The notes below the pieces were generated by a model. It was not told the DNA's origin. It saw nothing but the letters and a program-made list of their open reading frames with translations, and searched no databases. From Paralimibaculum aggregatum (GTDB lineage Bacteria > Pseudomonadota > Alphaproteobacteria > Rhodobacterales > Rhodobacteraceae), in NCBI RefSeq assembly GCF_030270585.1, contig NZ_BSYI01000050.1, forward strand, positions 1 through 39,658: 39,658 nt of DNA, given 5' to 3'. The position numbers and the translations under genes are program-made. How positions within the stretch are numbered: position 1 is the stretch's first letter; every line of letters starts with the position of its first letter. Shown here piece by piece: positions 22,504-39,658 of this stretch.

Positions 22504-23520
22504 ATGCCAGCCGCCCCTGCCACCGACCCGCCGCTGCTCGAGATCCGCGACCTGCGGGTGCATTTCCGCACCCCGGCGGGGGTCTTCGAGGCGGTGGGCG
22601 GGATCGATCTCGACCTGACGCCCGGCGAGGTGCTGGGGCTGGTCGGCGAGAGCGGCTCGGGCAAGAGCGTGGCGATGAAGGCGGTGCTCGGCCTGCTGCC
22701 GCCGCAGGCGCGGGTGACCGGGCAGATCCGCTTCCGCGGGCGCGACCTGCTGACCCTGCCGGAGCGGGAGATGCGCCGCCTGCGCGGCGGGCGCATCGCC
22801 ATGGTGTTCCAGGACCCGCTGACCGCCTTCAACCCGGTGGTGACCATCGGCGACCAGATCGGCGAGATGCTCTGGCTGCACGACCGCGCGCTCTCGCGCA
22901 GGCAGCTGCGCGCCCGCACCGAGGAGCTGCTGGCGCTGGTCTCGATCCCCGAGCCGGGCCGGCGCATCGGCGCCTATCCGCACGAGTTCTCCGGCGGCAT
23001 GCGCCAGCGCGCGATGATCGCCATGGCGCTGGCCAACGATCCCGAGCTGCTGATCGCCGACGAGCCGACCACGGCGCTCGACGTCACCGTGCAGGCGCAG
23101 ATCCTCGACGTGCTGCGCGGGCTGCAGGCGCGGCTCGGCATCGGGCTGGTGCTGGTGACCCACGATCTCGGCGTGGTGGCCGGCATGGCCCGCGAGATCG
23201 CGGTGATGTATGCCGGGCGCATCGTCGAGGCGGCGCCGGTGGACGATCTCTTCGCCGCGCCGCGGCACCCCTATACCCGCGGGCTGATCGGCGCGGTGCC
23301 GCGGCCCGACGGCGGCGGGCGCGGGCCGCTGGTGGCGATCGAGGGCAGCCCGCCGGGGCTGACCGAGCGGCTCTCGGGCTGCGCCTTCGCGCCGCGCTGC
23401 CCGCTTGCCGCTGCCCGCTGCACGGCCGAGCGGCCGGCGCTGCGCGCGCTCGGCTCCGGCCGCGCCGCCTGCCATTTCGCCGGGGCGCCGGCCCCGGCCG
23501 CGGCGGAGGCGGCGCGATGA
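22504..23520 (+). CDS. ABC transporter ATP-binding protein, DppD type
   Basis: One of the two ATPases of the importer, 338 residues. Walker A is GESGSGKS at residues 48-55, the signature is FSGGMRQR, Walker B is [12 protein letters not shown] and the switch His follows in VLVTHDLG. The oligopeptide-type C-terminal domain with clustered cysteines ([14 protein letters not shown]), which in relatives can hold an iron-sulfur cluster, is present. Its stop overlaps the start of the second ATPase gene by 4 bp. The last eight codons lie in a 91-bp sequence repeated at the right edge of the window. Confidence 0.93.
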
Positions 23521-23583
23521 GGGACGGCGCCGGGCCGCCGATGCTCGCGGTCGAGGATCTGGTCAAGACCTTCCCGCTCGGCA
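23493..23583 (+). repeat. Direct repeat, left copy (dppD end / dppF start)
   Basis: This 91-bp segment recurs at 39568-39658 with mismatches only at 23501 (C versus G) and 23534 (G versus C, silent). It contains the last eight codons of dppD and the first 22 of dppF. The offset between copies is 16,075 bp. Confidence 0.95.
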
Positions 23584-24542
23584 GCCGGCTGCTGACCGGG
23601 GCGCCGCTGGCCACGCTGCGGGCGGTGGACGGCGTCTCCTTCGAGATCGCCCGCGGCGAGACCTTCGGGCTGGTCGGCGAATCGGGCTGCGGCAAGTCCA
23701 CCCTCGGGCGCTGCATCCTGCGCCTGCTGCGCCCCGATGGCGGGCGGATCCGCCTCGCCGGCGACGACATCGCGGGGCTCGAGGGCCGGGCGCTGAAGGC
23801 GCTGCGCCGGCGGCTGCAGATCGTGTTCCAGGACCCCTTCGCCTCGCTGCATCCGCGGATGCGGGTGGCGCGCATCCTGGCCGAGCCGCTGATCCTCGCC
23901 GGCATCGGCGCGGCCGCCCGGCGCGCCCGCATCGCCGAGCTGCTGCGCCTCGTCAGCCTCGGCGAGGAGCATGCCCGGCGCTACCCGCACGAGCTCTCCG
24001 GCGGCCAGCGCCAGCGCGTCGGCATCGCCCGGGCGCTGGCGCTGGAGCCGGAGATGCTGGTGCTCGACGAGCCGGTCTCGGCGCTCGACGTCTCGATCCA
24101 GGCCGGGGTGCTCAACCTGCTCGACCGGCTGAAGCGCGAGCTCGGCCTCACCTATCTCTTCATCGCGCATGATCTCGCGGTGGTGCGGCACATCTCCGAC
24201 CGGGTGGCGGTGATGTATCTCGGGCGCATCGTCGAGGTGGCGCCGGCGGAGGCGCTCTACGAGGCGCCGCTGCACCCCTATACCCAGGCGCTGCTCTCGG
24301 CCGCGCCGGTGCCGGACCCGCCGAGGGAGCGGGCGCGCCGGCGCATCGTGCTGGAGGGCGACCTGCCGAGCCCGCTCGACCCGCCCTCGGGCTGCCGCTT
24401 CCGCACCCGCTGCTGGAAGGCGCAGGCGCTCTGCGCCGAGACCGCGCCGCCGCTGGCCGGCTGCGGCGCGGGCCGCGCCGTGGCCTGCCATTTCCCCGGG
24501 CCGCCGGGGGATCAGCCGGGAGGCGCCGCCGATGCCGGATGA
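23517..24542 (+). CDS. ABC transporter ATP-binding protein, DppF type
   Basis: The second ATPase, 341 residues. Walker A is GESGCGKS at residues 54-61, the signature LSGGQRQR, Walker [12 protein letters not shown], and the C-terminal oligopeptide domain has [14 protein letters not shown]. It starts in an ATGA overlap with dppD and ends inside the kinase gene (11-bp overlap), so the transporter and catabolic enzymes are one transcript. Its first 67 bases are repeated, with one silent change, at the window's right end. Confidence 0.93.
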
Positions 24543-25821
24543 GACCCGCGCCGGCCCGGCCTTCGACACCGGCGTCATCGCCGACGACCTGACCGGCGGG
24601 CTGCTGGTCGCCGGCTTCCTCGAGGCCGCCGGCATCCGCTGCCCGCTGTTCACCGCGCCGGAGCCGCTGTTCGCGCCGCCCGGCACCCCGGCCTGCGTGA
24701 TCGCGCGGCGCATCCGGCTGGCGCCGGCCGAGCAGGCGGTGACGGCCTTCGAGGTGGCGGCGCGCACGCTGCTCAGCCATCGCCCGCGGCAGCTCTACTA
24801 CAAGTACTGCGCCACCTTCGATTCCACCGATGCCGGCAATATCGGCCCCTGTGCCGAGGCGCTGCTGCGGATGACCGGGGCCGACCGGCTGGGCTTCTGC
24901 CCGGCCTTCCCGGCGGTCGGGATCACGCTCTACCAGGGCTACATGTTCCTGCGCGGCGAGCTGCTGAGCGAATCGCCCAAGCGGCACGACCCGGTCACCC
25001 CGATGCCGGACCCGCACATCCCCCGGGTGCTCGGGCGGCAGACCGGCCATTGCGTCGGCCTCGTGCCGCATGCGGTGCTGGCCGAGGGCGCCGCGGCGGT
25101 GCGGGCGCATGTCGACCGGCTGGCGGCGCGGGGCCGGCGCTTCCTCGTCTTCGATGCGCTCGACGATCGCGATGTCGCGGTCTGCGCCGAGGTGACCGCC
25201 GGCTGGCCGGCGATGACCGGGGGCGACACGCTCGCGCATCTCGCGCCGGCGGCCCGCGGCCTCGGCGGCGGGCAGCCCTATCGCGCGCCGCCGGTCGCCG
25301 GCCCCGGCGCGGTGATCGCCGGGAGCTGCGGGCCGGCGACGCTGCAGCAGCTCGCGCGCTTCGCCGCGCATCGCCCGCTGCGGCGGCTCGATCTGGTGGC
25401 GGCGGCGGCCAATCCCGGCGCCGCGGTCGGCGCGGCGCTCGACTGGGCCGGGCGGCATATCGGCGCCGGCCCGGTGGCGCTGGCGATCTCCGACGCGCCG
25501 GAGGGCGTGGCGGCGACCCAGGCGGTGCTCGGCCGGGACGAGGCGGCGCGGCTCGGCGAGCGGCTCTGCGCCGAGCTCGCGGCGGGGCTGTTCCGGCTCG
25601 GGCTGCGGCGCTTCGTGGTGGCCGGCGGCGAGACCTCGGGCGCGGTCGCCGAGGCGCTCGGCATCGAGCGGCTCGACGCGCCGCCGCCCGGCCGGCTCGG
25701 CGGCGGGCTCTGCCATGCCGCGGCACCGGAACCCATGGGCCTCTTCTTCAAGGCCGGCAAGATGGGCCCGCCCGATCTCTTCCTCGAGGCCCTCGCGACG
25801 ATGGAGACCCCCGATGGCTGA
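24532..25821 (+). CDS. Four-carbon acid sugar kinase family protein (OtnK-like, DUF1537)
   Basis: OtnK phosphorylates 3-oxo-tetronate at O4, and relatives act on threonate, erythronate or oxo-isoapionate. The 429-residue protein has both family domains. In the N-domain [19 protein letters not shown] (about 85-103), ITLYQGYMF and [16 protein letters not shown] align with OtnK; in the C-domain [10 protein letters not shown] and LFFKAGKMG bind ATP in relatives. One deviation is notable: the N-terminal ADDxTGAxD signature reads [12 protein letters not shown], without the usual Asp. The ATG at 24532 has GGAGG upstream and overlaps the dppF end. The neighbouring aldolase supports an oxo-acid-sugar phosphate intermediate. 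The exact substrate is uncertain. Confidence 0.82.
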
Positions 25822-26473
25822 CACCGCCCCCGCCGCCCCCACCGAGGCCGCGCTGCGCGCGGCGCTGGCCGAGAGCTATCTCTACCTCTCGCGGCACGGG
25901 CTGCTGGAGCTCAACTCGGGCAATGTCAGCTGCCGGTTCGGCGACGGCATCCTGATCTCGCCGAACGGCGCCTCGGCCGAGACGATCCGGCCCGGGAGCT
26001 TCGTCGCGGTGGCGGCGGATGGCAGCGCGGCCGGCTCCGGCCGCCCCTCCAGCGAGACGCCGATGCATCTCGCGGTCTATGCCCGGGTGCCGGAGGCCGG
26101 GGCGATCGTGCACACCCATTCCGACCATTGCACCGCGCTGGCCTGCTGCGGGCTGGGCATCCCCGGGTTCCACTATCTCGTCGGCGGCTTCGGCGGAGAC
26201 GACATCCCCTGCGTGCCCTATGCCACGTTCGGCTCGGCCGAGCTGGCGGAGCTGGCGGGCGCCGCGCTGGCGCGCCGCAAGGGCTGCCTCCTCGGCAATC
26301 ACGGCGCGATCTGTCACGACCGCGACATCGCGGCGGCGGCCGCCCGCGCGCACCGGCTGGAGAGCATCGCCCGGCAGTATCTGCTGGCCCGGCAGGCCGG
26401 CACGCCGCTGACGCTGACGGCGGAGAACTGGCGCGACTATCACGCGATGGCGGCGAAGTTCCGCTACGGCTGA
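25814..26473 (+). CDS. Class II aldolase/adducin family protein, OtnC-like decarboxylase
   Basis: In the known pathway OtnC decarboxylates 3-oxo-tetronate 4-phosphate to dihydroxyacetone phosphate and CO2. The 219-residue protein has the class II aldolase pattern: phosphate-binding SGNVSCR near residues 35-41, catalytic Glu in SSETPMH, zinc ligands in VHTHSDHC, and the third His in GNHGAIC. L-fuculose-phosphate aldolase-type C-C cleavage is the alternative activity. The ATG at 25814 has GGAGA ahead and overlaps the kinase gene by 8 bp. It is the last gene of the importer operon; the arsenic genes begin 89 bp later on the same strand with no obvious terminator between. Confidence 0.85.
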   Translation: MADTAPAAPTEAALRAALAESYLYLSRHGLLELNSGNVSCRFGDGILISPNGASAETIRPGSFVAVAADGSAAGSGRPSSETPMHLAVYARVPEAGAIVHTHSDHCTALACCGLGIPGFHYLVGGFGGDDIPCVPYATFGSAELAELAGAALARRKGCLLGNHGAICHDRDIAAAAARAHRLESIARQYLLARQAGTPLTLTAENWRDYHAMAAKFRYG

Positions 26474-26562
26474 GCCCCGCCGCGCCCCGCCGCGCCCGCA
26501 AGCCGGTTGATTGCCGCGCCGCTTTGGCAGAGGCTCGGCGGAAAACAGGGGAGGGCGCGACC

Positions 26563-27423
26563 GTGCGATCGGAGATCGGCCGGCGCGGGATCATCACGGG
26601 CGGCATGGCGGCGCTCGCGCTCGGCGCGGGGCGTGCCTCCGCGCGCGGCGCGGTCACGTTCGGCCTGACGCCGGTGTTCCTGACCAGCGACCGCGAGATC
26701 CTGGCGCTGCTGCGCGGCCATCTCGAGGCGGCGCTGGACCGCCCGGTGCGGCTGGTGCTGCGCCGGACCTATCAGGAGATCACCACCATGCTGCTCGCCG
26801 GCCAGCTCGATGCGGCCTGGATCTGCGGCTATCCCTTCGTGCGCCACCGGGCCGAGCTGGCGCTGCTGGCGGTGCCGGTCTGGCGCGGGCGGCAGCTCTA
26901 CCGTTCCTATCTCATCGTTTCGGCCGGGCGCGCGGCGGCCGGGCTGGCCGATCTCGCCGGCGACATCCATGCCTTCTCCGACCCGGATTCCAATTCCGGC
27001 TTCCTGGTCACCCGCAGCGAGCTGGCGGCGATGCAGGTCTCGCCGGACGCCTTCTTCGAGCGGCATTTCTTCACCTATGGCCATCGTAACGTGGTGCGCG
27101 CGGTGGCCAGCGGGCTGGCGCAGTCGGGCAGCGTCGACGGCTATGTCTGGGAGGCGCTGGCCGCCACCGAGCCGGCGCTGACCGCCGGCACCCGGGTGAT
27201 CTGGCGCTCGGAATGGCTCGGCTTTCCGCCGGTGGCCTGCGCCCGCGAGGCGGTGGGCGCGCCGGGCGTCGAGCGGCTGCGCCGGGCGCTCTATGCCATG
27301 CAGGGCTCGGAGACCGGCCGGCGGGTGCTGCGGCTCCTGCAGCTCGACGCCTTCGCCCCCGGCGAGCCGGCGCTGTTCGACGGCATCGCGGCGCGGCTCG
27401 GCTCGCTGGCGCAGGAGGGCTGA
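26563..27423 (+). CDS. AioX, PhnD-family periplasmic arsenite-binding protein
   Basis: AioX binds As(III) in the periplasm and passes the signal to the AioS kinase. The 286-residue product is a PhnD-type binding protein. An arginine-containing signal (GRRGIITGGMAALALGAG) ends ASARG, and the mature part opens VTFGLTPVFLTSDREILALL. The arsenite-sensing Cys of characterised AioX (Cys108 in Agrobacterium) corresponds to Cys88 in LDAAWICGYPFVR. Identity is fixed mainly by context: sensor kinase, sigma-54 regulator and aioBA follow directly. The start is a GTG at 26563 behind GGGGAGGG; no ATG fits the signal peptide. No phosphonate ABC permease is nearby, which excludes an ordinary PhnD role. The aioS gene starts 3 bp after its stop. 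Confidence 0.88.
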   Translation: MRSEIGRRGIITGGMAALALGAGRASARGAVTFGLTPVFLTSDREILALLRGHLEAALDRPVRLVLRRTYQEITTMLLAGQLDAAWICGYPFVRHRAELALLAVPVWRGRQLYRSYLIVSAGRAAAGLADLAGDIHAFSDPDSNSGFLVTRSELAAMQVSPDAFFERHFFTYGHRNVVRAVASGLAQSGSVDGYVWEALAATEPALTAGTRVIWRSEWLGFPPVACAREAVGAPGVERLRRALYAMQGSETGRRVLRLLQLDAFAPGEPALFDGIAARLGSLAQEG

Positions 27424-27426
27424 GGC

Positions 27427-28920
27427 ATGGTCCGGCTCGGCGCGCTGTCGCTCTCGGTGCGGGTGCCGCTGCTGGTGGCGGCGCTGATGGTGGTGGTCGG
27501 GGTGATCGCCTCGGAGCGGGTGCTCTCGCGCCTCGCCGAGACCCAGCAGCGCCAGCTCCGCGACCTCGCCGCGCTCTATCTCGACGGGCTCTCGGTGGCG
27601 GTGCTGCCGGCGGCGCTCCGGGCCGATGTCTGGGAGGCCTATGACGCGCTCGAGCGCGCCACCCGGCAGGATCGCAGCCTGCGCGCGCTGGTCACCACCG
27701 TGGTGATGGCGGAGGGCGAGATACTCGCCTCGAGCGATCCCGCGCGCTACCCAACCGGCGGCGCGGCGGGCGACCGCCTCGCCCATGCGCCGCCGCCCGG
27801 CGGGCTGGTGCTCTCCGGCGAGGCGCCCTCGGTGCGGGTGCAGGCGCCGCTCGACTACCAGGGCGAGACCATCGCGCGGCTGCATGCCGAGCTCGACGTC
27901 ACCGAGCTGCTGGCCGAGCGGCGGCGGGCGCTGCTCTATCTGGTGCTCGGCAACGCGGCGGCGACGGTGCTGCTCGCCGCCGCCGGCTATCTCGTGGTGC
28001 GCCGGATGCTGCATCCGGTCAGCCTGATCGCGGCGCATATGCGGGGCGAGGGCGGGGCCGGGCCGCAGCCGATCCCGGAGGCGCGGATCCCGCGCGGGGC
28101 CAACGAGTTCTCCGCCCTGTTCCGCACCTACAACGCCCTCGTCGCGGCCGAGCGCGAGCGCGAGGAGATCGCCCGCCGCGCCGCCGAACACCAGCGCCTG
28201 GTCAGCCTCGGCCGGCTGGCGGCGAGCGTCGCGCACGAGATCAACAACCCGCTCGCCGGGATGCTCGCCACGGTCGACACCATGAAGCGCCACGGCGACC
28301 GGCCCGGGGTCGCGGCCTCCGGCGTCGCGCTGATCGAGCGCGGCCTGATCGGCATCCGCAACGTGGTGCAGGCGATGCTCACCTCGAACCGGGCCGAGGC
28401 GGCGCAGCTGGCGCTCTCGGAGGCGGATTTCGACGATCTGCGCCTGCTGGTGACGCCGGAGATCCGCGAGCGGCACCAGCGGCTCGACTGGCAGGTGTCG
28501 CTGGGCGCCGGCGCGCGCTTTCCGGTGGCCAGCGGCCCGGTGCGCCAGATCGTGCTCAACCTGCTGCTCAACGCCACCGCGGCGGCCGGCGAGGGCGGGC
28601 GCGTCGGCTTCCGGGCGGGCTGCGACGGCACGGCGCTGCGCCTCGCGGTCTCCGACAGCGGCCCCGGCCTGCCGGCGGCGGCGCGGGCACGGCTCGCCGC
28701 GGGCGCGGCCGGCGCCGATGCGCCCGGCGCCGCCCCGCACACCCCGGATGCCGCCGATGCCGCCGATGCCGAGGGGGCCCGGGGCAATGGCGTCGGCCTC
28801 GGCGTGGTGGCGGAGCGCGCGGCGGCGCTCTCGGCCCGGCTCGACACCCGCCGCAGCCCCGCCGGCGAGACGGTGATCGAGATCGCGATCCCGCTCGCCG
28901 CCGAGACGGAGGCCGCCTGA
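27427..28920 (+). CDS. AioS, membrane sensor histidine kinase
   Basis: A 497-residue kinase with two helices (about 10-30 and 165-187) flanking a periplasmic domain that should contact AioX. A HAMP-like linker follows, then the dimerisation/phosphoacceptor domain with the H-box SVAHEINNPLAGM, His270 being the phosphorylated residue, and an HATPase_c domain (N-box LNLLLNATAAAGEGG, G1 SDSGPGLP, G2 GVGLGVV). A low-complexity Ala/Asp/Pro insert (about 435-455) sits in the ATP lid. GGAGG precedes the ATG. The stop overlaps the aioR start (TGATG), ensuring equal production of the pair. Confidence 0.9.
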   Translation: MVRLGALSLSVRVPLLVAALMVVVGVIASERVLSRLAETQQRQLRDLAALYLDGLSVAVLPAALRADVWEAYDALERATRQDRSLRALVTTVVMAEGEILASSDPARYPTGGAAGDRLAHAPPPGGLVLSGEAPSVRVQAPLDYQGETIARLHAELDVTELLAERRRALLYLVLGNAAATVLLAAAGYLVVRRMLHPVSLIAAHMRGEGGAGPQPIPEARIPRGANEFSALFRTYNALVAAEREREEIARRAAEHQRLVSLGRLAASVAHEINNPLAGMLATVDTMKRHGDRPGVAASGVALIERGLIGIRNVVQAMLTSNRAEAAQLALSEADFDDLRLLVTPEIRERHQRLDWQVSLGAGARFPVASGPVRQIVLNLLLNATAAAGEGGRVGFRAGCDGTALRLAVSDSGPGLPAAARARLAAGAAGADAPGAAPHTPDAADAADAEGARGNGVGLGVVAERAAALSARLDTRRSPAGETVIEIAIPLAAETEAA

Positions 28921-30281
28921 TGCTCGACGGACGGCGCATCGCGGTGATCGAGGACGACGCCATCATGGGCGAATCGCTCGTGCAGCGGCTCGCGCTCGAG
29001 GGCGCCGAGCCGCTGCTCTGGCGCACCGGGCGCGAGGCGCTGCGGGCGCATGCCGCGCTGGCCGGCCCGGTCGATGCGGTGGTCTGCGACATCCGCCTGC
29101 CGGATCTCGACGGCGAGGCGATCTTCATGGAGATCGCCCGCGCCGCCGCGCCGCCGCCCTTCCTCTTTCTCACCGCGCATGGCGACATCGACCAGGCGGT
29201 GCGGCTGCTGCGCGCCGGCGCGGCGGACTACCTGACCAAGCCGTTCGAGATGGATACCTTCCTCGCCCGCCTGGCCGCGGTGGCGGTGGGCCGCGGCGAG
29301 GCGACCGGGCCGGAGGGCGCGCTCGGCGTCTCGCCGCCGATGCGCCGGGTCGAGGCGATGCTGGCGCGGCTGGCCGATCACGCGCTGCCGGTGCTGCTCT
29401 CCGGCGAGACCGGGGCCGGCAAGGAGGTCGCGGCGCGGCATCTGCATGCCCGCTCGGCCCGCGCCGGCGAGCCCTTCGTCGCGGTCAACTGCGCCGCGAT
29501 CCCGGCGGAGCTGCTGGAGAGCGAGATCTTCGGCCACGAGAAGGGCGCCTTCAGCGGTGCCCATGCCCGCCATGCCGGGGTGGCCGAGCGCGCCGGCGGC
29601 GGCACCCTCTTCCTCGACGAGATCGGCGACATGGCGCTGCCGATGCAGGCCAAGCTGCTGCGGCTGATCGAGGATGCCGCGTTCTTCCGCATCGGCGGCG
29701 AGCGCCCGGTGGCGTTCCGCGCGCGCATCGTCTCGGCGACCCATTGCGACCTCGCGGCGCTGGCCGCCGAGGGGCGCTTCCGGCAGGACCTGCTGTTCCG
29801 GCTCAACGCGGTCGAGGTGGCGCTGCCGCCGCTGCGCGCCCGCGAGGCCGACATCCCCTGGCTGATGCGGCGCTTCTTCGAGGCCGCCCGCGCCCGCGGC
29901 CCGACCCGGCTGCGCGCCATCGGCAGCCTTGCCGAGGAGGCCGCGCTCTCGCATGGCTGGCCGGGCAATGTGCGCGAGCTGCGCAACCGGATCGACCGGG
30001 CGGTGGCGCTCGCCGAGGGCGAGGTGCTGGGGCTGGCCGACCTGTTCCCGGAGTTCCTGCTGCAGGGCGGCGGCGAGGAGGCCGGCGTGGCGCCGCTGGC
30101 CGAGGCCCGCGCGGCGGCGGAGCGGCGCCAGATCTCCCGCGCGCTCGAGCACACCGGCGGGCGCATCGCCGAGGCGGCGGCGCTGCTCCAGGTCTCCCGC
30201 ACCACGCTGTGGGAGAAGATGCAGCGGCTCGAGATCCGCCCCGGCGCGGCCGGCGGCGATGTCCGGAATTCCGGACGCTGA
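28920..30281 (+). CDS. AioR, sigma-54-dependent response regulator
   Basis: A 453-residue NtrC-class activator. The receiver domain (1-125) has phospho-acceptor Asp57 in VVCDIRLPDLDG. The AAA+ domain has Walker A GETGAGKE at 162-169 and Walker B TLFLDEIGDM. The sigma-54 contact loop is GAFSGA at 209-214 instead of the usual GAFTGA. A Fis-type helix-turn-helix at the end reads GRIAEAAALLQVSRTTLWEK. Its expected target is the aioBA promoter directly downstream, where a perfect -24/-12 element and two palindromes are found. The first palindrome overlaps the last codons of this gene. Ser for Thr in the loop occurs naturally in some activators, but its effect here is unknown. Confidence 0.92.
   Translation: MLDGRRIAVIEDDAIMGESLVQRLALEGAEPLLWRTGREALRAHAALAGPVDAVVCDIRLPDLDGEAIFMEIARAAAPPPFLFLTAHGDIDQAVRLLRAGAADYLTKPFEMDTFLARLAAVAVGRGEATGPEGALGVSPPMRRVEAMLARLADHALPVLLSGETGAGKEVAARHLHARSARAGEPFVAVNCAAIPAELLESEIFGHEKGAFSGAHARHAGVAERAGGGTLFLDEIGDMALPMQAKLLRLIEDAAFFRIGGERPVAFRARIVSATHCDLAALAAEGRFRQDLLFRLNAVEVALPPLRAREADIPWLMRRFFEAARARGPTRLRAIGSLAEEAALSHGWPGNVRELRNRIDRAVALAEGEVLGLADLFPEFLLQGGGEEAGVAPLAEARAAAERRQISRALEHTGGRIAEAAALLQVSRTTLWEKMQRLEIRPGAAGGDVRNSGR
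30261..30276. promoter_or_regulatory. Upstream palindrome 1, candidate AioR enhancer site
   Basis: GTCCGGAATTCCGGAC is a perfect 16-bp palindrome inside the 3' end of aioR. A related site follows 33 bp (about three helical turns) downstream. Placement about 100-130 bp before the sigma-54 promoter is typical of enhancer-binding activators. Confidence 0.6.
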
Positions 30282-30293
30282 GCCCGGCCGCCC

Positions 30294-30309
30294 GTTCGGA
30301 TAACCGGAC
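30294..30309. promoter_or_regulatory. Upstream palindrome 2, candidate AioR enhancer site
   Basis: GTTCGGATAACCGGAC is an imperfect 16-bp inverted repeat sharing the GTyCGG half-site with the palindrome at 30261-30276. Its centre is about 73 bp upstream of the -24 GG of the aioBA promoter. Confidence 0.6.
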
Positions 30310-30372
30310 GGTTCCGCCCGCCGCCCCCCGAAATCTCCCCGTAAGCCCCCGGAATCGCTGGCCCCGGCGCGC

Positions 30373-30388
30373 TGGCACGCGCCTTGCT
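30373..30388 (+). promoter_or_regulatory. Sigma-54 (-24/-12) promoter of aioBA
   Basis: TGGCACG at 30373-30379 and TTGCT at 30384-30388 give TGGCAC-N5-TTGCT, a perfect match to the RpoN consensus, 52 bp before the aioB start codon. With the adjacent NtrC-class AioR gene and two upstream palindromes, regulation by arsenite through AioX/S/R is strongly implied. Confidence 0.9.
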
Positions 30389-30439
30389 CCCGTCCCGTGG
30401 AGCCACCGATACCGATCAAGAACCAATGGGAGGACAGGA

Positions 30440-30958
30440 ATGCGGTGCAGGAAGATGGCCGAGATCGGCCGCCGGCAATTCTTGAGGGGCGGCGCGCTGG
30501 CGACCGCGGGAGCCGCCGCGGTGGCGGTGAGCGGGCCGGAGGCGCGCGCCGCCGTGGCCCCGGCGCGGGTCGCCTATCCGGCGAACCGGCTCGCCAACAT
30601 CGCCGATCTGACGGTGAACGAGCCCCTCGACGTGGCCTATCCCGACGACGACGCGCCGGGGGTGCTGCTGAAGCTCGGCCACCCGGTCGAGGGTGGCGTC
30701 GGGCCGGAGGGCGACGTGGTGGGCTTCTCCACCATCTGCCCGCACAAGGGCTACCCGCTGTTCTACAATGCCGAGGACCGGACCCTCAACTGTCCGGGCC
30801 ATTTCTCGCGCTTCGACCCGGAGGCCGGCGGACAGCAGGTCTGGGGCCAGGCGACGCAGAACCTGCCGCAATACGTGCTGCGCGTGGACGATGACGGCGA
30901 GATCCATGCCGAGGGCGTGGACGAGCTGCTCTACGGCCGCCTGTCGAACGTGCTCTGA
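30440..30958 (+). CDS. AioB, arsenite oxidase small (Rieske) subunit
   Basis: The Rieske subunit passes electrons from AioA to an electron acceptor in the periplasm. The 172-residue precursor carries a twin-arginine signal (GRRQFLRGGALATAGAAAVA, cleavage near ARA) that exports the folded heterodimer. The [2Fe-2S] ligands are Cys100, His102, Cys118 and His121, in the pattern C-x-H-x15-C-x2-H typical of AioB. The extra cysteine pair that forms a disulfide beside the cluster in many Rieske proteins is replaced by Tyr105 and Gly120. The ATG at 30440 has GGGAGGA upstream; a second ATG at 30455 would still precede the Tat motif. aioA starts 13 bp after its stop. Confidence 0.94.
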   Translation: MRCRKMAEIGRRQFLRGGALATAGAAAVAVSGPEARAAVAPARVAYPANRLANIADLTVNEPLDVAYPDDDAPGVLLKLGHPVEGGVGPEGDVVGFSTICPHKGYPLFYNAEDRTLNCPGHFSRFDPEAGGQQVWGQATQNLPQYVLRVDDDGEIHAEGVDELLYGRLSNVL

Positions 30959-30971
30959 GGGAGGGACCAGC

Positions 30972-33491
30972 ATGGCCTACAAACGCCAGATCGACCGTCT
31001 GCCGATCATCCCCGCGGACGCGAAGAAGCACAACGTCACCTGCCACTACTGCATCGTCGGCTGCGGCTATCACGCCTACACCTGGCCGATCAACAAGCAG
31101 GGCGGCACGGCGCCGGAGGAGAACGCCTTCGGGGTGGACCTCTCGGAACAGCAGGGGGCGGAGACCGAGGCGTGGTATGCGCCCTCGATGTATTCCATCG
31201 TCAAGCAGGACGGGAAGGACGTCCATCTCGTCATCAAGCCGGACCAGGGCTGCTCGGTGAATTCCGGGCTCGGCTCGATCCGCGGCGCGCGGATGGCGGA
31301 GAACCGCCGCTCCGACGTGCTCGGCACCCAGCAGCAGCGCCTGACCGAGCCGATGGTCTGGCGCTACGGCACCTGGCAGCCGACCTCCTGGGAGGATGCG
31401 CTGGATCTCGTCGCCCGCGTCACCGCCCGGGTGATCGACGACGGTGACGAGGACGACCTCTATGTCTCGATGTTCGACCATGGCGGCTCGGCCGGCGGCT
31501 ACGAGAACACCTGGGGCACCGGCAAGCTCTATTTCGACTCGATGAAGGTGAAGAACTGCCGGATCCACAACCGCCCGGCCTACAATTCCGAGGTGCACTC
31601 GACCCGCGACATGGGGATCGGCGAGCTCAACTACTGCTACGAGGACTACCAGCTCACCGACACGATCTTCATGGTCGGGGCCAACAGCCTGGAGACCCAG
31701 ACCAACCTCTTCCTCAACCACATGGTCCCCGGGGTGCGCGGCGACACGCTGGCGAAGAAGGAGGCCGAGCTGCCCGGCGAGCTGCATGCCCCGGCGAGGG
31801 TGGTGGTGGTCGATCCGCGCCGCACGGTGACGGTGAACGCCTTCGAGGAGGTCGCGGGCAAGGAGAACGTGCTGCATCTCGCGATCAACTCGGGCACCGA
31901 TCTCGCGCTGTTCAACGCGCTCTTCACCCATATCGCCGACCAGGGCTGGGTGGATGCCGAGTTCATCGCCGCCTCGACCTTCCAGGACGGCGTGGCGCAG
32001 CCGCAGGACGAGCAGCACCCGGCAGCGCTCGGCAGCTTCGAGGCGGCGCGCGCCGCCTGCCGCATGTCGCTGGCGGATGCGGCGGCGATCTGCGGCGTCT
32101 CCGAGGCCGATATCGCGAAGGCCGCGGAGTGGATCGCCATGCCCAAGGAGGGCGGCGCGCGGCGGCGCTGCGTGTTCCCCTACGAGAAGGGCATCATCTG
32201 GGGCAACGACAACTACCGCACCATCGGCGCGCTGGTGAATCTCGGCCTCGCCACCGGCAATATCGGCCGGCCCGGCGGCGGCGTGGTGCGCCTCGGCGGG
32301 CACCAGGAGGGCTACATGCGGCCCTCGGACGCGCATGTCGGCCGGCCCGCCCCCTATCTCGACCGGCTGATCATCGGCGGCGGCGGCAAGGTGCACCACA
32401 TCTGGGCCAACGACCACTACAAGACCACGCTCAACGCCTCCGAGTTCAAGCGCGTCTACAACCGCCGCACCAACATGGTGAAGGAGGCGATGGATGCCCG
32501 CGCCGGCGCCACCCGCGAGGAGCTGGTGGATGCCATCGTCGCCGCCATCGAGGCCGGCGGGCTGTTCTCGGTGAATGTCGACATCGTGCACACCCAGATC
32601 GGGCAGCAGGCGCATGTGATCCTGCCGGCGGTGGAATCGGGCGAGATGAACCTCACCTCGATGAACGGCGAGCGGCGCATGCGGCTGGTGGAGAAATACA
32701 TGGACGGGCCGGGCTCGGCCAAGCCCGACTGCCTGATCGCCGCCGGCCTCGCCCAGGCGCTCGAGCGGGTTCTGCGCGAGGAGGGCCGCGACGCCTATGC
32801 CGACCGCTTCAAGGGCTATGACTGGGCCAGCGAGGAAGACGCCTTCATGGACGGCTACCACGCCAACACCGGCCAGATCGTCACCTATGACCGGCTGCGG
32901 GCGATGGGCAACAACGGCGTGCAGGAGCCGGTGATCGGCTACGAGGACGGCAAGCTGATCGGCGTGAAGCGGCTCTATGCCGACGGCAAGTTCGACCGCC
33001 ACGGCCGCGAGGACAAGAAGGCACTGTTCTGCTGCGGCGCCTGGCGCGGGCTGCAGGCCCCCGGCAAGGCGGCGCAGAAGGCCGGCTTCCGCTTCCTCGT
33101 CAACAACGGCCGCTCCAACATCAACTGGCAGAACTGGTTCCTCGACAAGGACAACGACTTCGTCGCCGACCGCTACCCCTATCCCTTCCTCGAGATCCAT
33201 CCCGACGACATGGCGGATCTCGGCCTCGCGGCGGGGGATCTGGTGGAGGTCTACAACGATGTCGGCGCCACCCAGGCGATGGCCTATCCGGTGGAGACGG
33301 CGCGGCGCGGCGAGACCTTCATGCTGTTCGGCGCGCCCTCGGGCACCCAGGGCAACGTGATCAACGCCGGCACCAACGAGCTGATCCTGCCCAACTACAA
33401 GCAGACCTGGGCGGATATCCGGAAGATCTCCGACGCCCCGGCGACGGTGAAGCACCTCTCCTTCAAGTCGAAGGAATACCGCATGGGCTGA
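30972..33491 (+). CDS. AioA, arsenite oxidase large molybdopterin subunit
   Basis: The catalytic subunit oxidises As(III) to As(V) at a bis-MGD molybdenum centre. The 839-residue length matches known AioA. The [3Fe-4S] motif is Cys24-x2-Cys27-x3-Cys31 (CHYCIVGCGYH), and Ser102 stands where the fourth position is Ser in AioA (Ser99 in Alcaligenes), which separates it from [4Fe-4S] DMSO-reductase relatives. Also AioA-like are GCSVNSGLGSIRGARMAEN and NGRSNINWQNWFLDKDNDF. It has no signal of its own and should be co-exported with AioB by Tat. GAGGGAGG precedes the ATG. No cytochrome c or moeA gene follows, unlike many aio operons. A hairpin terminator lies 12 bp after the stop. Confidence 0.95.
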   Translation: MAYKRQIDRLPIIPADAKKHNVTCHYCIVGCGYHAYTWPINKQGGTAPEENAFGVDLSEQQGAETEAWYAPSMYSIVKQDGKDVHLVIKPDQGCSVNSGLGSIRGARMAENRRSDVLGTQQQRLTEPMVWRYGTWQPTSWEDALDLVARVTARVIDDGDEDDLYVSMFDHGGSAGGYENTWGTGKLYFDSMKVKNCRIHNRPAYNSEVHSTRDMGIGELNYCYEDYQLTDTIFMVGANSLETQTNLFLNHMVPGVRGDTLAKKEAELPGELHAPARVVVVDPRRTVTVNAFEEVAGKENVLHLAINSGTDLALFNALFTHIADQGWVDAEFIAASTFQDGVAQPQDEQHPAALGSFEAARAACRMSLADAAAICGVSEADIAKAAEWIAMPKEGGARRRCVFPYEKGIIWGNDNYRTIGALVNLGLATGNIGRPGGGVVRLGGHQEGYMRPSDAHVGRPAPYLDRLIIGGGGKVHHIWANDHYKTTLNASEFKRVYNRRTNMVKEAMDARAGATREELVDAIVAAIEAGGLFSVNVDIVHTQIGQQAHVILPAVESGEMNLTSMNGERRMRLVEKYMDGPGSAKPDCLIAAGLAQALERVLREEGRDAYADRFKGYDWASEEDAFMDGYHANTGQIVTYDRLRAMGNNGVQEPVIGYEDGKLIGVKRLYADGKFDRHGREDKKALFCCGAWRGLQAPGKAAQKAGFRFLVNNGRSNINWQNWFLDKDNDFVADRYPYPFLEIHPDDMADLGLAAGDLVEVYNDVGATQAMAYPVETARRGETFMLFGAPSGTQGNVINAGTNELILPNYKQTWADIRKISDAPATVKHLSFKSKEYRMG

Positions 33492-33503
33492 GCCATGGGG
33501 CCC

Positions 33504-33530: not shown

Positions 33531-33536
33531 TTCCGC

Positions 33537-34556: not shown

Positions 34557-34696
34557 CGCCGGGTCTCCTCTTTGCTTCGGGGCGGAGCCTAGCCCGCGGG
34601 GCGTGCAATGTGCTTTCCTTCTTGCGCGCTGAATCTCCGGAAATCTTACCTTTCGGGCGCATTCCTGGCGATATCGGGGCATTGAAGAGGTTTCAG

Positions 34697-35173
34697 ATGA
34701 AAGATCCTTCCGCCGGGGAGATCGACCGAATCGACCGCAACATCCTGCGCGCCCTGCAGCGCGACGGGCGGCTCTCCAATGCCGATCTGGCGAAGGCGGT
34801 GAATGTCAGCCCGGCGACCTGCCACCGGCGCACCCAGCGGCTGATCGCGGCGGGGCGGATCCGCAATGTCCGCGCGGAGGTCGATCCGGAGGCGGTGGGC
34901 CTCGGTACGCTGGTGATGGTCGGCGTGGTGCTCGACCGCTCGACGCCGGAGAGCTTCGCCGCCTTCGAGGACGCGGTGGCCGGGATGAAGGAACTGCTCG
35001 ACTGCCACCTCGTCGCCGGCGATTTCGACTATCTCCTGAAGATCCGGGTGCGCGATCTCGGCGATTTCAACCGGCTGCACAGCCGGATGCTGATCGCGCT
35101 GCCGGGGGTGCGGCAGATCCGCAGCTTCTTCGTGATGAAGCAGGTCAAGGAGAACGCGCCGCTGGCCTTCTGA
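34697..35173 (+). CDS. Lrp/AsnC-family regulator, probable AcdR
   Basis: A 158-residue Lrp-type regulator. The N-terminal helix-turn-helix ([20 protein letters not shown], recognition helix in [13 protein letters not shown]) is followed by the RAM/ligand domain with [19 protein letters not shown]. AcdR proteins activate acdS, responding to ACC or leucine. The divergent arrangement with acdS and a 140-bp shared control region fit that role. I chose the ATG at 34697, with GAGG 8 bases upstream; the open frame before it is not Lrp-like. I could not identify a convincing Lrp box. It is followed by the arsRC gene after 77 bp on the same strand, but that gene has its own operator. Confidence 0.9.
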
Positions 35174-35222
35174 GCGGGCGCGGCCGGCCGGTTTCGATCG
35201 TCATCGAATGGTCGCTTGAATG

Positions 35223-35256
35223 ATCCATGAATTCGTGTATTCACGGATTCATGGAT
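35223..35256. promoter_or_regulatory. 34-bp operator palindrome at the arsRC start
   Basis: Arms ATCCATGAATTCGTG (35223-35237) and CACGGATTCATGGAT (35242-35256) form a 15-bp inverted repeat with one mismatch around TATT. It overlaps a plausible promoter (TTGAAT at 35216-35221, 16-bp gap, TATTCA at 35238-35243) and the start codon at 35251. This is the natural autoregulatory site for the ArsR domain. Confidence 0.8.
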
Positions 35257-36144
35257 AATGAATCGCACGCCGCCACCCTCACCGCCCTCGGCCATCCCGG
35301 CCGGCTCGCCGTGTTCCGCCTGCTCGCCCGCCGCGCGCCGGACGGGGTGCGGCCGAGCGAGATCGCCGATGCCCTCGGGCTCAAGCCGACCACGCTTTCG
35401 GCCCATGTCTCGCTGCTGGCGCGGGTCGGGCTGGTGAACTCCGAGCGGGTCGGCAAGTCGGTGTTCTACCGGATCGACCTCGAGCGGGTCGGCGCGCTGG
35501 TTCAGTTCCTCGTCGCGGATTGCTGCCGCGGCCGGCCCGAGCTCTGTGTGCCGCTCGCGGCGCATGCCCTCTCACGTCTCGACACAGGACCCGATCCCAT
35601 GTCCGCCACCCAGCCCGAGCGCGTCTTCAACGTGCTCTTCATCTGCACCGGCAATTCCGCCCGCTCGATCTTCGCCGAGGCGATCCTCGCCAGGGAGGGC
35701 GCCGGCAAGTTCCGCGCCTTCTCCGCCGGCACCCGGCCGCGCTCCGAGCTGAACCCGCAGGCCATCGAGGTGCTGGAGAAGTTCGGCCACGACGTCGCGG
35801 GCCTGCGCGCGAAGAATGTCGACGAGTTCCAGGGCCCCGGCGCGCCGCCGCTCGACTTCGTCTTCACGGTCTGCGACCAGGCGGCCAACGAGGAGTGCCC
35901 GCCCTGGCCGGGCCAGCCGATCAGCGCCCATTGGGGGATGCCCGACCCGGTGAAGGCCGAGGGCAACGAGGCCGAGCGCGGCCTCGCCTTCCTCCGCGCC
36001 TATGCCACGCTGCGCCACCGGCTGACCGGCTTCCTGGCGCTGCCGGTGGCCGAGCTCGACCGGGTCTCGCTGCAGTCCCGCCTCGACGCGATCGGGCGCA
36101 GCGATGCCGGAACCCCGGCCGAAACCACCGTGGAGGCCGGCTGA
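35251..36144 (+). CDS. ArsR-ArsC fusion: arsenite-responsive repressor joined to arsenate reductase
   Basis: One 297-residue chain. Residues 1-100 are an ArsR winged helix (LGHPGRLAVFRLLARR, recognition helix in LKPTTLSAHVSLLARVGLV) with a C-terminal As(III) site Cys91-Cys92-x6-Cys99. After a 20-residue linker, residues 120-297 are a low-molecular-weight-phosphatase-type ArsC. Its catalytic loop is Cys132-TGNSA-Arg138, and two further cysteines, Cys208 and Cys216, could run the thioredoxin-linked disulfide relay. There is no stop or frameshift at the junction; an internal ATG at 35599 could start ArsC alone. I chose the ATG at 35251 because the operator covers the alternative at 35227 and the ArsR core begins about ten residues later. 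The mRNA may be leaderless. acr3 starts 3 bp after the stop. Confidence 0.92.
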   Translation: MDNESHAATLTALGHPGRLAVFRLLARRAPDGVRPSEIADALGLKPTTLSAHVSLLARVGLVNSERVGKSVFYRIDLERVGALVQFLVADCCRGRPELCVPLAAHALSRLDTGPDPMSATQPERVFNVLFICTGNSARSIFAEAILAREGAGKFRAFSAGTRPRSELNPQAIEVLEKFGHDVAGLRAKNVDEFQGPGAPPLDFVFTVCDQAANEECPPWPGQPISAHWGMPDPVKAEGNEAERGLAFLRAYATLRHRLTGFLALPVAELDRVSLQSRLDAIGRSDAGTPAETTVEAG

Positions 36145-36147
36145 GAC

Positions 36148-37227
36148 ATGGCGAACACCACGCATGACGCCCCCGCCGCCCCCGCCGCCTCGGCCGAGGC
36201 GGCGGGCCTCGGCGCCTTCGAGAAATGGCTCTCGCTCTGGGTCGGGCTGGCGATCCTCGCCGGGCTGGTGCTCGGCAGCCTGGCGCCCGGGCTCTTCGGG
36301 GCGCTGGCCGGTGCCGAGATCGCCAGGGTCAACCTGGTGATCGCGGTGCTGATCTGGGCGATGGTCTACCCGATGATGGTCGGCGTCGATTTCGCCGCCC
36401 TCGCCCGCATCGGCGACAAGCCCAAGGGGCTGATCGTGACGCTGGCGATCAACTGGCTGATCAAGCCCTTCACCATGGCCGCCCTCGGCGTGCTGTTCTT
36501 CGAGCACGTCTTTGCCGGGCTGATCCCGCCGGAGGACGCGCAGGCCTATCTCGCCGGGGTGATCCTGCTCGGCGCGGCGCCCTGCACGGCGATGGTCTTC
36601 GTCTGGTCGCAGCTCACCCGTGGCGATCCGACCTACACGCTGGTGCAGGTCAGCGTGAACGACGTGGTGATGATCTTCGCCTTCGCCCCGATCGTCGCGC
36701 TGCTGCTCGGCGTCACCGACATCCCGGTGCCCTGGGGGACGCTGCTGCTCTCGGTCGGGCTCTATGTGGTGATCCCGCTGGCGGCGGGGCTGCTGACCCG
36801 GGCGCAGCTGGTGCGCCGCGGCGGCGAGGCGGCGGTGGAGGCGTTCAAGGCACGGGTGAAGCCGTGGTCGATCATGGGGCTGCTGGCCACCGTGGTGCTG
36901 CTCTTCGGCTTCCAGGGCCAGGTGATCCTCGACCGGCCGATGGTGATCGCGCTGATCGCGGTGCCGCTGCTGATCCAGACCTACGGCATCTTCGCCATCG
37001 CCTATGGCGTGGCGCTGGCCTGGCGGATCCCCTTCAACGTCGCCGCGCCCTGCGCGCTGATCGGCACCTCGAACTTCTTCGAGCTGGCGGTGGCGGTGGC
37101 GATCAGCCTGTTCGGCCTCGGCTCCGGCGCGGCGCTGGCCACGGTGGTCGGCGTGCTGGTGGAGGTGCCGGTGATGCTCTCCCTCGTCGCGCTCGCCAAC
37201 CGGACGCGGCACTGGTTCCCCGAGTGA
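36148..37227 (+). CDS. ACR3-family arsenite efflux transporter
   Basis: Acr3 expels As(III) made by arsenate reduction. The 359-residue protein has about ten helices. The conserved Cys essential in the family lies in [22 protein letters not shown]; other hallmarks are [22 protein letters not shown], the later [18 protein letters not shown], and EVPVMLSLV near the C-terminus. The first 25 residues are Ala/Pro-rich and cytoplasmic. It is tightly coupled behind arsRC, so repression by the ArsR domain and supply by the ArsC domain match the pump. Acr3 is electrochemically driven, and no ArsA ATPase is present. Confidence 0.95.
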
Positions 37228-37261
37228 CCGCCAGACCCCCCTTCGAGCGAGGACCAACACC

Positions 37262-38275
37262 ATGGCACGGATCGCAATCAACGGCCTCGGCCGGATGGGC
37301 AAGCTGCTGCTGCGCCGGCTGATCGGGGCGGGCACGACCGACGAGATCGTGCTGCTCAACGATGGCGTCGGCGATGCCGCGCTGCATGCCCATCTCATGG
37401 AGTTCGACAGCGTGCACGGGCGCTGGCGGGCGGAGATCGGCCACGATGCCGAGAGCATCACGGTGGACGGCCGCCGGATGCGCCTGACCGGGGCGAAGCG
37501 GCTCGAGGACCTGCCGCTGGCCGCGCTCGGCGTCGATCTCGCGATCGACTGCACCGGGGCGTTCAAGACCCCGGCCCGGCTGCAGCCCTATTTCGACGCC
37601 GGGGTGCGGAAGGTGCTGGTCTCCGCCCCGGTCAGGGAGGCGCCGGCGCTCAACCTCGTCTACGGCGTCAACCACGACCGCTACGACCCGGCGGCGCATC
37701 ATCTGGTGACGGCAGCGAGCTGCACCACCAACTGCCTCGCCCCTGTGGTCAAGGTGCTGCACGAGGCGATCGGCATCCGCCACGGTTCGATCACCACGGT
37801 GCACGACGTCACCAACACGCAGACCATGGTCGACCGCCCGGCCAAGGACCTGCGCCGGGCGCGCTCGGCGCTGAGCTCGCTGATCCCCACCACCACCGGC
37901 TCGGCCACCGCGATCACGCTGATCTATCCCGAGCTCAAGGGCCGGCTCAACGGCCATGCGGTGCGGGTGCCGCTGCTCAACGCCTCGCTGACCGACTGCG
38001 TCTTCGAGATGGAACGCGAGACCACGGTGGCCGAGATCAACGGCCTCTTTGCCGCCGCCGCCGGGGGCGCGCTCGAGGGCGTGCTCGGCTTCGAGACGCG
38101 GCCGCTGGTCTCGGCCGACTATCTCGACGACCCGCGCTCGGCGATCGTCGACGGGCCCTCGACCATGGTGATCGCCGGCACGCAGGTGAAGGTCTATGCC
38201 TGGTACGACAACGAGTGGGGCTATGTCTGCCGCATGGCGGATCTCGCCGGCATGATCTCGGAGGGGATGGCGTGA
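37262..38275 (+). CDS. ArsJ-associated glyceraldehyde-3-phosphate dehydrogenase
   Basis: In ars operons this GAPDH uses arsenate in place of phosphate, making 1-arseno-3-phosphoglycerate for export by ArsJ. The 337-residue enzyme has the NAD-binding start [18 protein letters not shown], the catalytic Cys154 in AASCTTNC, and the conserved C-terminus [15 protein letters not shown]. The segment [13 protein letters not shown] differs from the usual TVHAYTATQ-like form, consistent with the ars-specific branch. It starts 34 bp after acr3 with GCGAGGA upstream, and its stop overlaps the GTG of arsJ by 4 bp, a strong sign of joint function. Housekeeping GAPDH is less likely given this linkage. Confidence 0.93.
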
Positions 38276-39549
38276 CCGCCGCCCCCCGGCCCGAGGGGCT
38301 CGCCGCCTATTGCGCGGTGACCGCGGCCTACTGGGCCTTCATGCTCACCGACGGTGCGCTCAGGATGCTGGTGCTGCTGCATTTCCACAGCCTCGGCTTC
38401 TCGCCGGTCCAGCTCGCCTGGCTGTTCCTGCTCTACGAGGCGGCCGGGGTGGTGACCAACCTCTCGGCCGGCTGGATCGCGGCGCGCTTCGGCCTCACCG
38501 CCACGCTCTATGCCGGGCTGGTGCTGCAGATCGGCGCGCTGCTGGCGCTGGCCGCGCTCGATCCGGGCTGGGCGATGGCCGCCTCGGTGGGTTTCGTGAT
38601 GGCGGTGCAGGGGGTCTCTGGGGTCGCCAAGGACCTCGCCAAGATGTCCTCCAAGAGCGCGGTGAAGCTGCTGGCGCCGGCCGGCGAGAAGGGCGCGCTG
38701 TTCCGCTGGGTGGCGCTGCTCACCGGCTCGAAGAACGCGGTGAAGGGGCTGGGCTTCCTGCTCGGCACGCTGCTGCTCGGCACGGCCGGCTTCACCGGCT
38801 CGGTGCTGGCGATGGCGGCGGCGCTGGCGGCGATCCTCGCGGCGGTGGCGGTACTGATGCCGCCCGGCCTGCCGCGGGGCGGCAGGGGCGCGCGGTTCGG
38901 CGAGGTGTTCTCGAGGGACCGCAACGTCAACCGGCTCTCGGCGGCCCGGCTCTTCCTCTTCGGCGCGCGCGACACCTGGTTCGTCGTCGGCATCCCGGTC
39001 TATTTCTACAGCGTGCTGTCGGACGGCTCGGAGGCCGGCAACCGCGCCGCCTTCTTCCAGATCGGCGCCTTCATGGCCTGCTGGATCATCGGCTATGGCG
39101 CGGTCCAGGCGGCGGCGCCGCGGCTGCTAAGGGCGAAGGCGCGGAGCGTTGCCGAGATCGCCCGGCAGGCGCGGCTCTGGGTCGGGCTGCTGACGCTGGT
39201 GCCGGCGGCGCTGGCGCTGGCGGCCTGGGCCGCGGGCGGGCCGGCGGGCTGGCTGACCGCGGTGCTGGTGGCCGGGCTGCTGCTCTTCGGGGCGGTGTTC
39301 GCGGTCAACTCCTCGCTGCATTCCTACCTGATCCTGGCCTTCAGCTCGGCCGGCCGGGTCACCATGGATGTGGGCTTCTACTACATGTCGAACGCGCTCG
39401 GGCGGCTGCTCGGCACGCTGCTCTCGGGGCTGAGCTACCAGGCCGGCGGGCTGGCGCTCTGCCTCGCGGCGGCGGCGGCGATGGCCGGGCTGAGCTGGCT
39501 CTGCGCCGGGCGGCTCGCGCGCGCGCCGGGGCTCGCCGCGACGGGCTAG
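38272..39549 (+). CDS. ArsJ, organoarsenical (1-arseno-3-phosphoglycerate) efflux MFS transporter
   Basis: ArsJ exports 1-arseno-3-phosphoglycerate, which then falls apart to arsenate and 3-phosphoglycerate, giving net arsenate efflux. The 425-residue protein is an MFS carrier with about 11-12 helices. Family-typical stretches are [20 protein letters not shown] at the N-terminus, [20 protein letters not shown] with [15 protein letters not shown] in the middle, and [19 protein letters not shown] near the end. The start is the GTG at 38272 in a GTGA overlap with the GAPDH stop; upstream GGAGGGG fits. It closes the arsenic operon. Eighteen bases after its stop the duplicated dppD/dppF sequence begins, with no terminator in between. 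Confidence 0.94.
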
Positions 39550-39567
39550 GCGCCCCGCTGCGCGCCG

Positions 39568-39658
39568 CCCGGCCGGGGCGGAGGCGGCGCGATGAGGGAC
39601 GGCGCCGGCCCGCCGATGCTCGCGGTCGAGGATCTGGTCAAGACCTTCCCGCTCGGCA
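39568..39658 (+). repeat. Direct repeat, right copy (dppD end / dppF start), cut by the window edge
   Basis: This is the second copy of 23493-23583, with 89 of 91 bases identical, and it runs into the end of the window, so the true repeat may be longer. It begins within the last codons of dppD, and no other part of dppD precedes it; the arsJ stop is 18 bp to the left. Confidence 0.95.
39592..39658 (+). CDS. 5' end of a second DppF-type ATPase gene (partial)
   Basis: The first 22 codons encode [20 protein letters not shown] and two more residues, identical to the dppF product at 23517; the only base difference (39609) is silent. The gene leaves the window before Walker A, so whether it is intact is unknown. 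It could be a full second dppF, a truncated remnant, or the start of a 16-kb tandem duplicate. Confidence 0.6.
   Translation, partial: MRDGAGPPMLAVEDLVKTFPLG

What the first reader, a model, noticed from the sequence alone, without database searches (positions are those of the whole stretch)
23493..39658. A 16,075-bp segment (dppF, otnKC, whole arsenic island) lies between near-identical direct repeats
The last 91 bases of the window match 23493-23583 with two mismatches, one silent in dppF. The copy holds only the last eight dppD codons and the dppF start, directly behind arsJ. This pattern fits tandem duplication or amplification of the segment, insertion of the segment at dppD/dppF with a duplicated boundary, or a break or collapse in assembly. 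Two mismatches argue against a trivial circular overlap. A duplicated arsenic island would be a dosage adaptation.
Basis: partly seen in the sequence, partly recalled or inferred. Interest (0 to 1): 0.7.

Follow-up and report, generated by a model that had tools for sequence, protein, structure and literature searches.

The report
Contig-end assembly artefact beside arsenic genes
The apparent second copy of a gene start after the arsenic-resistance genes is most likely a short stray tail stuck on the end of an assembled DNA piece, a fault that seems to recur at other piece ends of the same draft genome, so it is not evidence that the bacterium has doubled its arsenic genes.

Summary
In detail: 39568-39658 copies 23493-23583 with 89 of 91 matches, direct orientation, 16,075 bases apart. 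The interpretation changes because the window is one whole contig, C50, of a 201-contig draft, so the repeat is a contig tail. No second copy of dppF, otnKC, aio or ars was found in the held contigs. Of 40 other contig ends sampled, three show the same anatomy: C40 start, C57 start and C60 end. Each is a 94-99% copy, 87-259 nt long, of the middle of a gene of the same contig, same orientation, abruptly joined, with the source in an unbroken contig. In all four cases the 100 nt on the contig side of the join are 86-87% G+C; 3 of 65 other contig ends reach 86%. Other repeated ends more often pair with another contig's end. Best reading: a chimeric dead-end tail where coverage probably failed in extreme G+C. 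A real tandem duplication is not excluded, since reads are not held and 106 small contigs are withheld, but nothing specific supports it. The arsenic island is ordinary in content.

The parts
23493..23583 (+). Interior (source) copy: last eight dppD codons and start of dppF, in an unbroken contig
39568..39658 (+). Terminal copy, 89 of 91 identical, to the last base of contig C50; probable chimeric tail
39468..39567 (+). 100 nt of 87% G+C just before the join (end of arsJ and 18 nt after its stop codon)
22504..23520 (+). dppD-like ABC transporter ATPase
   Evidence: best hits below their curated cut-offs
23517..24542 (+). dppF-like ABC transporter ATPase
   Evidence: NF008453, 388.5 bits, cut-off 408
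24532..25821 (+). otnK-like 3-oxo-tetronate kinase
   Evidence: NF043035, 320.8 bits, cut-off 350
25715..26473 (+). class II aldolase family (otnC-like; profile matches start near residue 44-51, so the true start is probably inside this ORF)
   Evidence: hits below curated cut-offs
26464..27423 (+). aioX-like periplasmic binding protein
   Evidence: annotated relatives
27427..28920 (+). aioS-like sensor histidine kinase
28920..30281 (+). aioR-like sigma-54 response regulator
30305..30958 (+). aioB, arsenite oxidase small subunit (frame searched; profile matches residues 89-216, exact start not set)
   Evidence: TIGR02694, 202 bits, cut-off 95.65
30693..33491 (+). aioA, arsenite oxidase large subunit (profile matches from residue 102, so the true start is probably downstream)
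   Evidence: TIGR02693, 1201 bits
33537..34682 (-). PLP-dependent enzyme, divergent from the Lrp-type gene
   Evidence: PF00291; the opposite ORF 33495-34592 has no family match
34610..35173 (+). Lrp/AsnC-type regulator
35227..36144 (+). arsR-arsC-like fusion (HTH plus low-molecular-weight phosphatase fold)
36148..37227 (+). acr3 arsenite efflux transporter
   Evidence: TIGR00832
37262..38275 (+). ArsJ-associated GAPDH
   Evidence: NF033735
38215..39549 (+). arsJ, organoarsenical efflux transporter
   Evidence: NF033734

Best explanation
The terminal 91 bases are a chimeric dead-end tail made by library preparation or assembly. The contig runs into a stretch of 87% G+C behind arsJ where normal reads probably fail. 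The last bases then come from one or a few stray molecules in which the DNA behind arsJ had been joined to DNA 16 kb upstream on the same molecule, for example by self-ligation of a fragment in a jumping library. Shown: the repeat, its contig-end position, the extreme G+C at the join, three other contig ends with the same anatomy, and no second copy found in the held contigs. Inferred: low coverage, the chimeric molecules and how they arose.
For: (1) The window is a whole contig and the copy is its last 91 bases. (2) Three of 40 other sampled ends match the interior of their own contig in the same orientation: C40:1-259 to C40:32226-32484 (255/259), C57:1-126 to C57:6493-6618 (125/126), and 87 of the last 88 nt of C60 to C60:21511-21597 (82/87). 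The sources lie inside a UDP-glucose/GDP-mannose dehydrogenase, an RsmB/F-type methyltransferase and an FGE-sulfatase-domain gene. (3) The contig-side 100 nt at all four joins are 86-87% G+C; of 65 other contig ends 3 reach 86% in their outermost 100 nt (not quite the same place, since for the tails the join lies inside the end). (4) The source copies lie in unbroken contigs. Among the other ends of the 40 with a match of 88% or more outside their own contig, 8 of 10 have a partner within about 4 nt of another contig's end (C43e, C53s, C53e, C61e, C56s, C41s, C44s, C52s). (5) Queries covering all of 23300-39658 find no second copy in the held genome: apart from the tail itself, the longest listed match of 90% or more is 36 nt, and one 99-nt match of 89% lies in dppF (C21). 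(6) The assembler carried C40 through an exact repeat run of 133 nt, yet the tails' outermost exact runs are 59, 46, 49 and 56 nt, so identity alone does not explain the stops. (7) In 79 of 80 arsJ relatives with at least 1 kb behind arsJ, no same-strand DppD/DppF relative lies within 1 kb.
Against: No reads or coverage could be seen. 106 of 201 contigs (C96-C201, under 3 kb) read as N, so an exit contig could be hidden. Four joins of the same direct, same-contig kind are also what real tandem duplications or excised circles would give. Distances of about 2.8, 6.5, 16 and 32 kb do not fit one narrow jumping library. None of 27 readable ends of C82-C95 showed a same-contig copy, though those contigs are short. 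An interior partner is not unique to the tails: C44 start also matches inside C37, C89 end matches inside C90 (92%, 450 nt), C50's own start matches dispersed places, and the partners of C49 start (C31) and C47 start (C4) were not placed relative to a contig end.
Confidence: 0.8

Rival explanations
1. A real tandem duplication (or higher amplification) of about 16 kb, dppF to arsJ, joined behind arsJ to the end of dppD. The second copy collapsed in assembly; the arsenic genes would be present at raised dosage.
For: The join has the right order and orientation. Nothing else in the held contigs continues from arsJ, as full collapse would allow.
Against: An exit contig sharing arsJ's 3' end is absent among held contigs, though small contigs are withheld. 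The copies differ at 2 of 91 positions. The same anatomy occurs at unrelated genes in three other contig ends.
Confidence: 0.1
2. The join exists in a minority of cells as a transient duplication or excised circle, and the assembler used it only because no other reads covered the G+C-rich end.
For: Direct same-contig joins at four places. PMC3411829 (passages read) estimates spontaneous duplications in about 20% of cells or more in culture.
Against: In that paper the confirmed rearrangements had repeats at their endpoints, with a deduced cut-off of 11 bp for duplications. Here ungapped identity stops at once on the one side of the join that can be tested; the other side is unknown, so this is weak. 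Four of 42 ends (40 sampled plus the two of C50) is a high share for rare events.
Confidence: 0.06
3. The segment was inserted at the dppD/dppF border and duplicated the border, as an integrating element might.
For: Direct repeats flank the segment; aio genes lie on plasmids in other Alphaproteobacteria.
Against: A rest of dppF to the right, as a contig start, was not found among held contigs. No integrase or transposase family among the 16 segment ORFs or frames searched. The same contig-end pattern occurs elsewhere.
Confidence: 0.03

Closest known systems
Chimeric or misassembled contig ends in draft assemblies
   Same: Short near-identical tail at a contig end, abrupt join, extreme G+C. PMC2884544 (passages read) names repeats, secondary structures, G+C-rich regions and low depth as usual causes of misassemblies and gaps.
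   Different: All four tails come from the same contig in the same orientation; two searches (listings only) showed no paper on exactly this, which is no proof that none exists.
Tandem gene duplication-amplification in bacteria
   Same: The join has the order and orientation of a tandem-duplication junction.
   Different: No second copy, exit contig or depth evidence; the same pattern occurs at unrelated genes.
Arsenic islands with aioXSR-aioBA and ars genes
   Same: Gene content, and aioXSR in the same orientation as aioBA, as PMC3834237 reports for Alphaproteobacteria (passages read).
   Different: No real difference established; here the island stands beside dpp-like and otn-like genes.

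Membership tests
Tandem duplication or amplification | Order and orientation of the join: end of unit to start of unit | tested here: met
Tandem duplication or amplification | A second copy of the unit, or an exit from it, elsewhere in the assembly | tested here: inconclusive
   None found among held contigs; 106 contigs under 3 kb are withheld, and a collapsed copy would not show
Tandem duplication or amplification | Raised read depth or long reads across two units | not testable with these tools
   no reads held
Chimeric contig tail | Copy sits at the physical end of a contig | tested here: met
Chimeric contig tail | Same anatomy recurs at unrelated contig ends of the assembly | tested here: met
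   3 of 40 sampled ends; 0 of 27 ends of short contigs
Chimeric contig tail | Tail supported by few reads | not testable with these tools
   no reads held
Integrated mobile element with duplicated boundary | Integrase or transposase inside the segment | tested here: not met
   no such family among the 16 ORFs or frames searched; not every ORF was searched
Arsenic island (aioXSR-aioBA with ars) | aioBA with aioXSR in the same orientation and ars genes nearby | tested here: met

The most novel reading that the evidence does not exclude
The four joins are real: DNA next to very G+C-rich stretches repeatedly switches back to an upstream site on the same molecule, leaving error-bearing copies or tandem duplications of gene fragments, one of which now carries a duplicated arsenic island. 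The mismatches fall mostly at adenines of the source copy (9 of 12, post hoc hypergeometric p 3e-6), which would fit an error-prone copying step, although a sequencing-chemistry bias is the simpler reading.
Probability: 0.03. Interest if true: 0.65.

Novelty: not a real feature. Interest (0 to 1): 0.1.

Why it matters
If taken at face value the repeat would suggest dosage adaptation to arsenic. That the same kind of tail occurs at unrelated contig ends warns against that claim and gives a simple screen for any draft genome: compare each contig end with the interior of its own contig, and note the G+C of the join.

Tried and rejected
Circular overlap of the contig: rejected, since the partner is interior and the contig start is a different, dispersed repeat. 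A conserved gene order behind arsJ: in the same-genus genome G003, dpp and gapdh-arsJ lie about 10 kb apart on one contig but with other genes between, and a GNAT-family gene on the opposite strand, not dpp, follows arsJ. In the 80 arsJ relatives, 79 hold at least 1 kb behind arsJ; the only DppD/DppF-like hit within 1 kb is an opposite-strand ABC ATPase of 30% identity in L084, 184 nt behind; a blastn of the 91-base tail gave only chance-level hits (20 rows, E 0.06 or worse). One search had a length filter that a gene fragment would not have passed, so one search repeated it without. OtnK relatives in other genomes do not help to date the dpp-otn link. Assembler k from fixed end overlaps: the exact runs vary, so no k could be set. 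A diversity-generating retroelement, suggested by the adenine bias and by the FGE domain in C60: rejected as a general account, since the other source genes are not known targets (recalled), and C50's two mismatches are not at adenines. I did not search for its reverse transcriptase.

Limits of the background count: only 80 nt of each of 40 ends were searched, 20 ends per query, with 40 candidates scored per search. Left out of the count as a different kind: local tandem repeats at C54 end and C56 end. Papers: searches were seen as listings with starts of abstracts; passages were read in PMC2884544, PMC3834237 and PMC3411829. Reading the mismatches as sequencing-chemistry errors is recalled knowledge, not tested.

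Full report
Observation. The repeat is real in the sequence given. Bases 39568-39658 match 23493-23583 at 89 of 91 positions with the last 49 exact, spaced 16,075 bases apart. A 49-base probe from it occurs twice in the window and in none of 100 shuffles. One difference is silent in dppF; the other changes Ala to Gly in the dppD tail.

Where it sits. The window is exactly contig C50 of a draft genome of 5,505,440 bases in 201 contigs, so the second copy is the tail of a contig. A 30-base probe with up to 3 mismatches finds only these two places in the held genome. Searches with 23300-24300, 23300-24542, 24400-31500, 31300-38400 and 38215-39658 find no second copy. The best full-length relative of the dppF query is a dpp paralogue on C48 at 72-73%. 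Apart from the tail itself, the longest listed match of 90% or more is 36 nt (C16), and one 99-nt match of 89% (C21) lies in dppF. The limit is that small contigs are not held: of the 120 contigs C82-C201 that I fetched, 106 (C96-C201, all under 3 kb) read entirely as N.

A background test. I took both ends of 20 contigs (C40-C61 without C48 and C50) and searched 80 nt of each against the held genome. Three of these 40 ends match the interior of their own contig in the same orientation. C40 starts with 259 nt copied from 32226-32484 (4 mismatches). C57 starts with 126 nt copied from 6493-6618 (1 mismatch). C60 ends with 87 nt copied from 21511-21597 (5 mismatches), and its very last base differs too. 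The source stretches lie inside a UDP-glucose/GDP-mannose dehydrogenase, an RsmB/F-type methyltransferase and an FGE-sulfatase-domain gene. Like C50, each copy breaks off abruptly: the next 20 nt agree at 6 to 8 positions. Among 27 readable ends of C82-C95, compared only within 15 contigs, none shows a same-contig copy.

What other repeated ends look like. Besides the three tails, ten of the 40 ends have a listed match of 88% or more in another contig. Eight of these partners lie within about 4 nt of that contig's end: C43e/C19, C53s/C6, C53e/C28, C61e/C56 and C56s/C61 (one pair), C41s/C66, C44s/C70 and C52s/C85. The other two, C49s/C31 and C47s/C4 (53-55 nt), were not placed relative to a contig end. 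Further pairs of contig ends are C84/C85 and C89/C90 starts. Against a clean rule: C44s also matches inside C37, C89 end matches inside C90 at 92% over 450 nt, and C50's own start matches dispersed places in 13 other contigs. Still, a long true repeat should tend to break both copies, and in the four tails the source copy is unbroken and in the same contig.

The join. The 100 nt on the contig side are 87, 87, 86 and 87% G+C for C50, C40, C57 and C60. Of 65 other ends, 3 reach 86% in their outermost 100 nt (C41 start, C54 end, C50 start), with a median of 70%; the places compared are not identical, since in the tails the join lies inside the contig end. So these four contigs turn into tails where the DNA is extreme in G+C. 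The tails carry 12 mismatches in 563 positions, 9 of them at an adenine of the source copy (post hoc p 3e-6), 5 transitions to 7 transversions. That fits error-bearing copies better than evolving duplicates, but C50's own two are C>G and G>C, and the test was chosen after seeing the data. The outermost exact runs are 59, 46, 49 and 56 nt (in C60 followed by one differing base), while C40 was carried through an exact run of 133 nt, so identity to the source does not by itself explain why the contigs stop.

Relatives. Of 80 loci around arsJ relatives, 79 hold at least 1 kb behind arsJ. The only DppD/DppF-like hit within 1 kb is an opposite-strand ABC ATPase of 30% identity in L084, 184 nt behind arsJ; the 91-base tail itself gives only chance-level DNA hits there. 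In G003, of the same genus, dpp and gapdh-arsJ lie on one contig about 10 kb apart with different genes between, and a GNAT-family gene on the other strand follows arsJ. I found the join arsJ-dppD/dppF nowhere else.

Conclusion. The best account is a chimeric dead-end tail: coverage probably fails in the G+C-rich stretch behind arsJ and a stray join to nearby DNA supplies the last bases. That the joins are direct and on the same contig would fit self-ligated fragments of a jumping library, but the distances (about 2.8 to 32 kb) are wide and the library is unknown. A real tandem duplication remains possible because reads are not held and small contigs are withheld. PMC3411829 (passages) reports that its confirmed spontaneous rearrangements have direct or inverted repeats at their endpoints; here only one side of the join can be tested, and shows none.

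The arsenic genes themselves (aioX, aioS, aioR, aioB, aioA, an arsR-arsC-like fusion, acr3, the ArsJ-associated GAPDH and arsJ), with a PLP-dependent enzyme and an Lrp-type regulator between aioA and arsR-arsC, form a usual island of the kind described in PMC3834237 (passages).

On rereading the calls I mended the statement on genes behind arsJ (L084), the list of repeated ends with interior or unplaced partners, the count of segment ORFs searched and the gene at 33537-34682.

Noticed in passing
window 107-927: The contig start lies in a degenerate tandem repeat with a spacing of about 27 nt; its outermost bases also recur, at 74-97%, in 13 other contigs.
   Followed up: partly
L299, L301, L294 (ends of C40, C57, C60) with L300, L302, L315: Three other contig ends carry 87-259 nt copies of the middle of a gene of their own contig, joined next to stretches of 86-87% G+C.
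   Followed up: yes
C50, C40, C57 and C60 tails: 9 of the 12 mismatches between tail and source lie at an adenine of the source copy; unexplained, possibly sequencing chemistry.
   Followed up: partly
L033-L034 (G003 C21): A same-genus genome has dpp and gapdh-arsJ on one contig about 10 kb apart with quite different genes between them.
   Followed up: partly
window 24532-24542: The dppF-like and otnK-like ORFs overlap by 11 bases, suggesting that otnK and otnC are transcribed with the dpp operon; otnK was not beside dpp in the listed hits of relatives (the list is capped).
   Followed up: no
L288 (C54 end): The last 80 nt of C54 are a perfect 40-nt direct duplication (45-nt exact run).
   Followed up: no
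window 33537-34682: A PLP-dependent enzyme gene on the minus strand, divergent from an Lrp-type regulator, sits inside the arsenic island; its role there is unclear.
   Followed up: no
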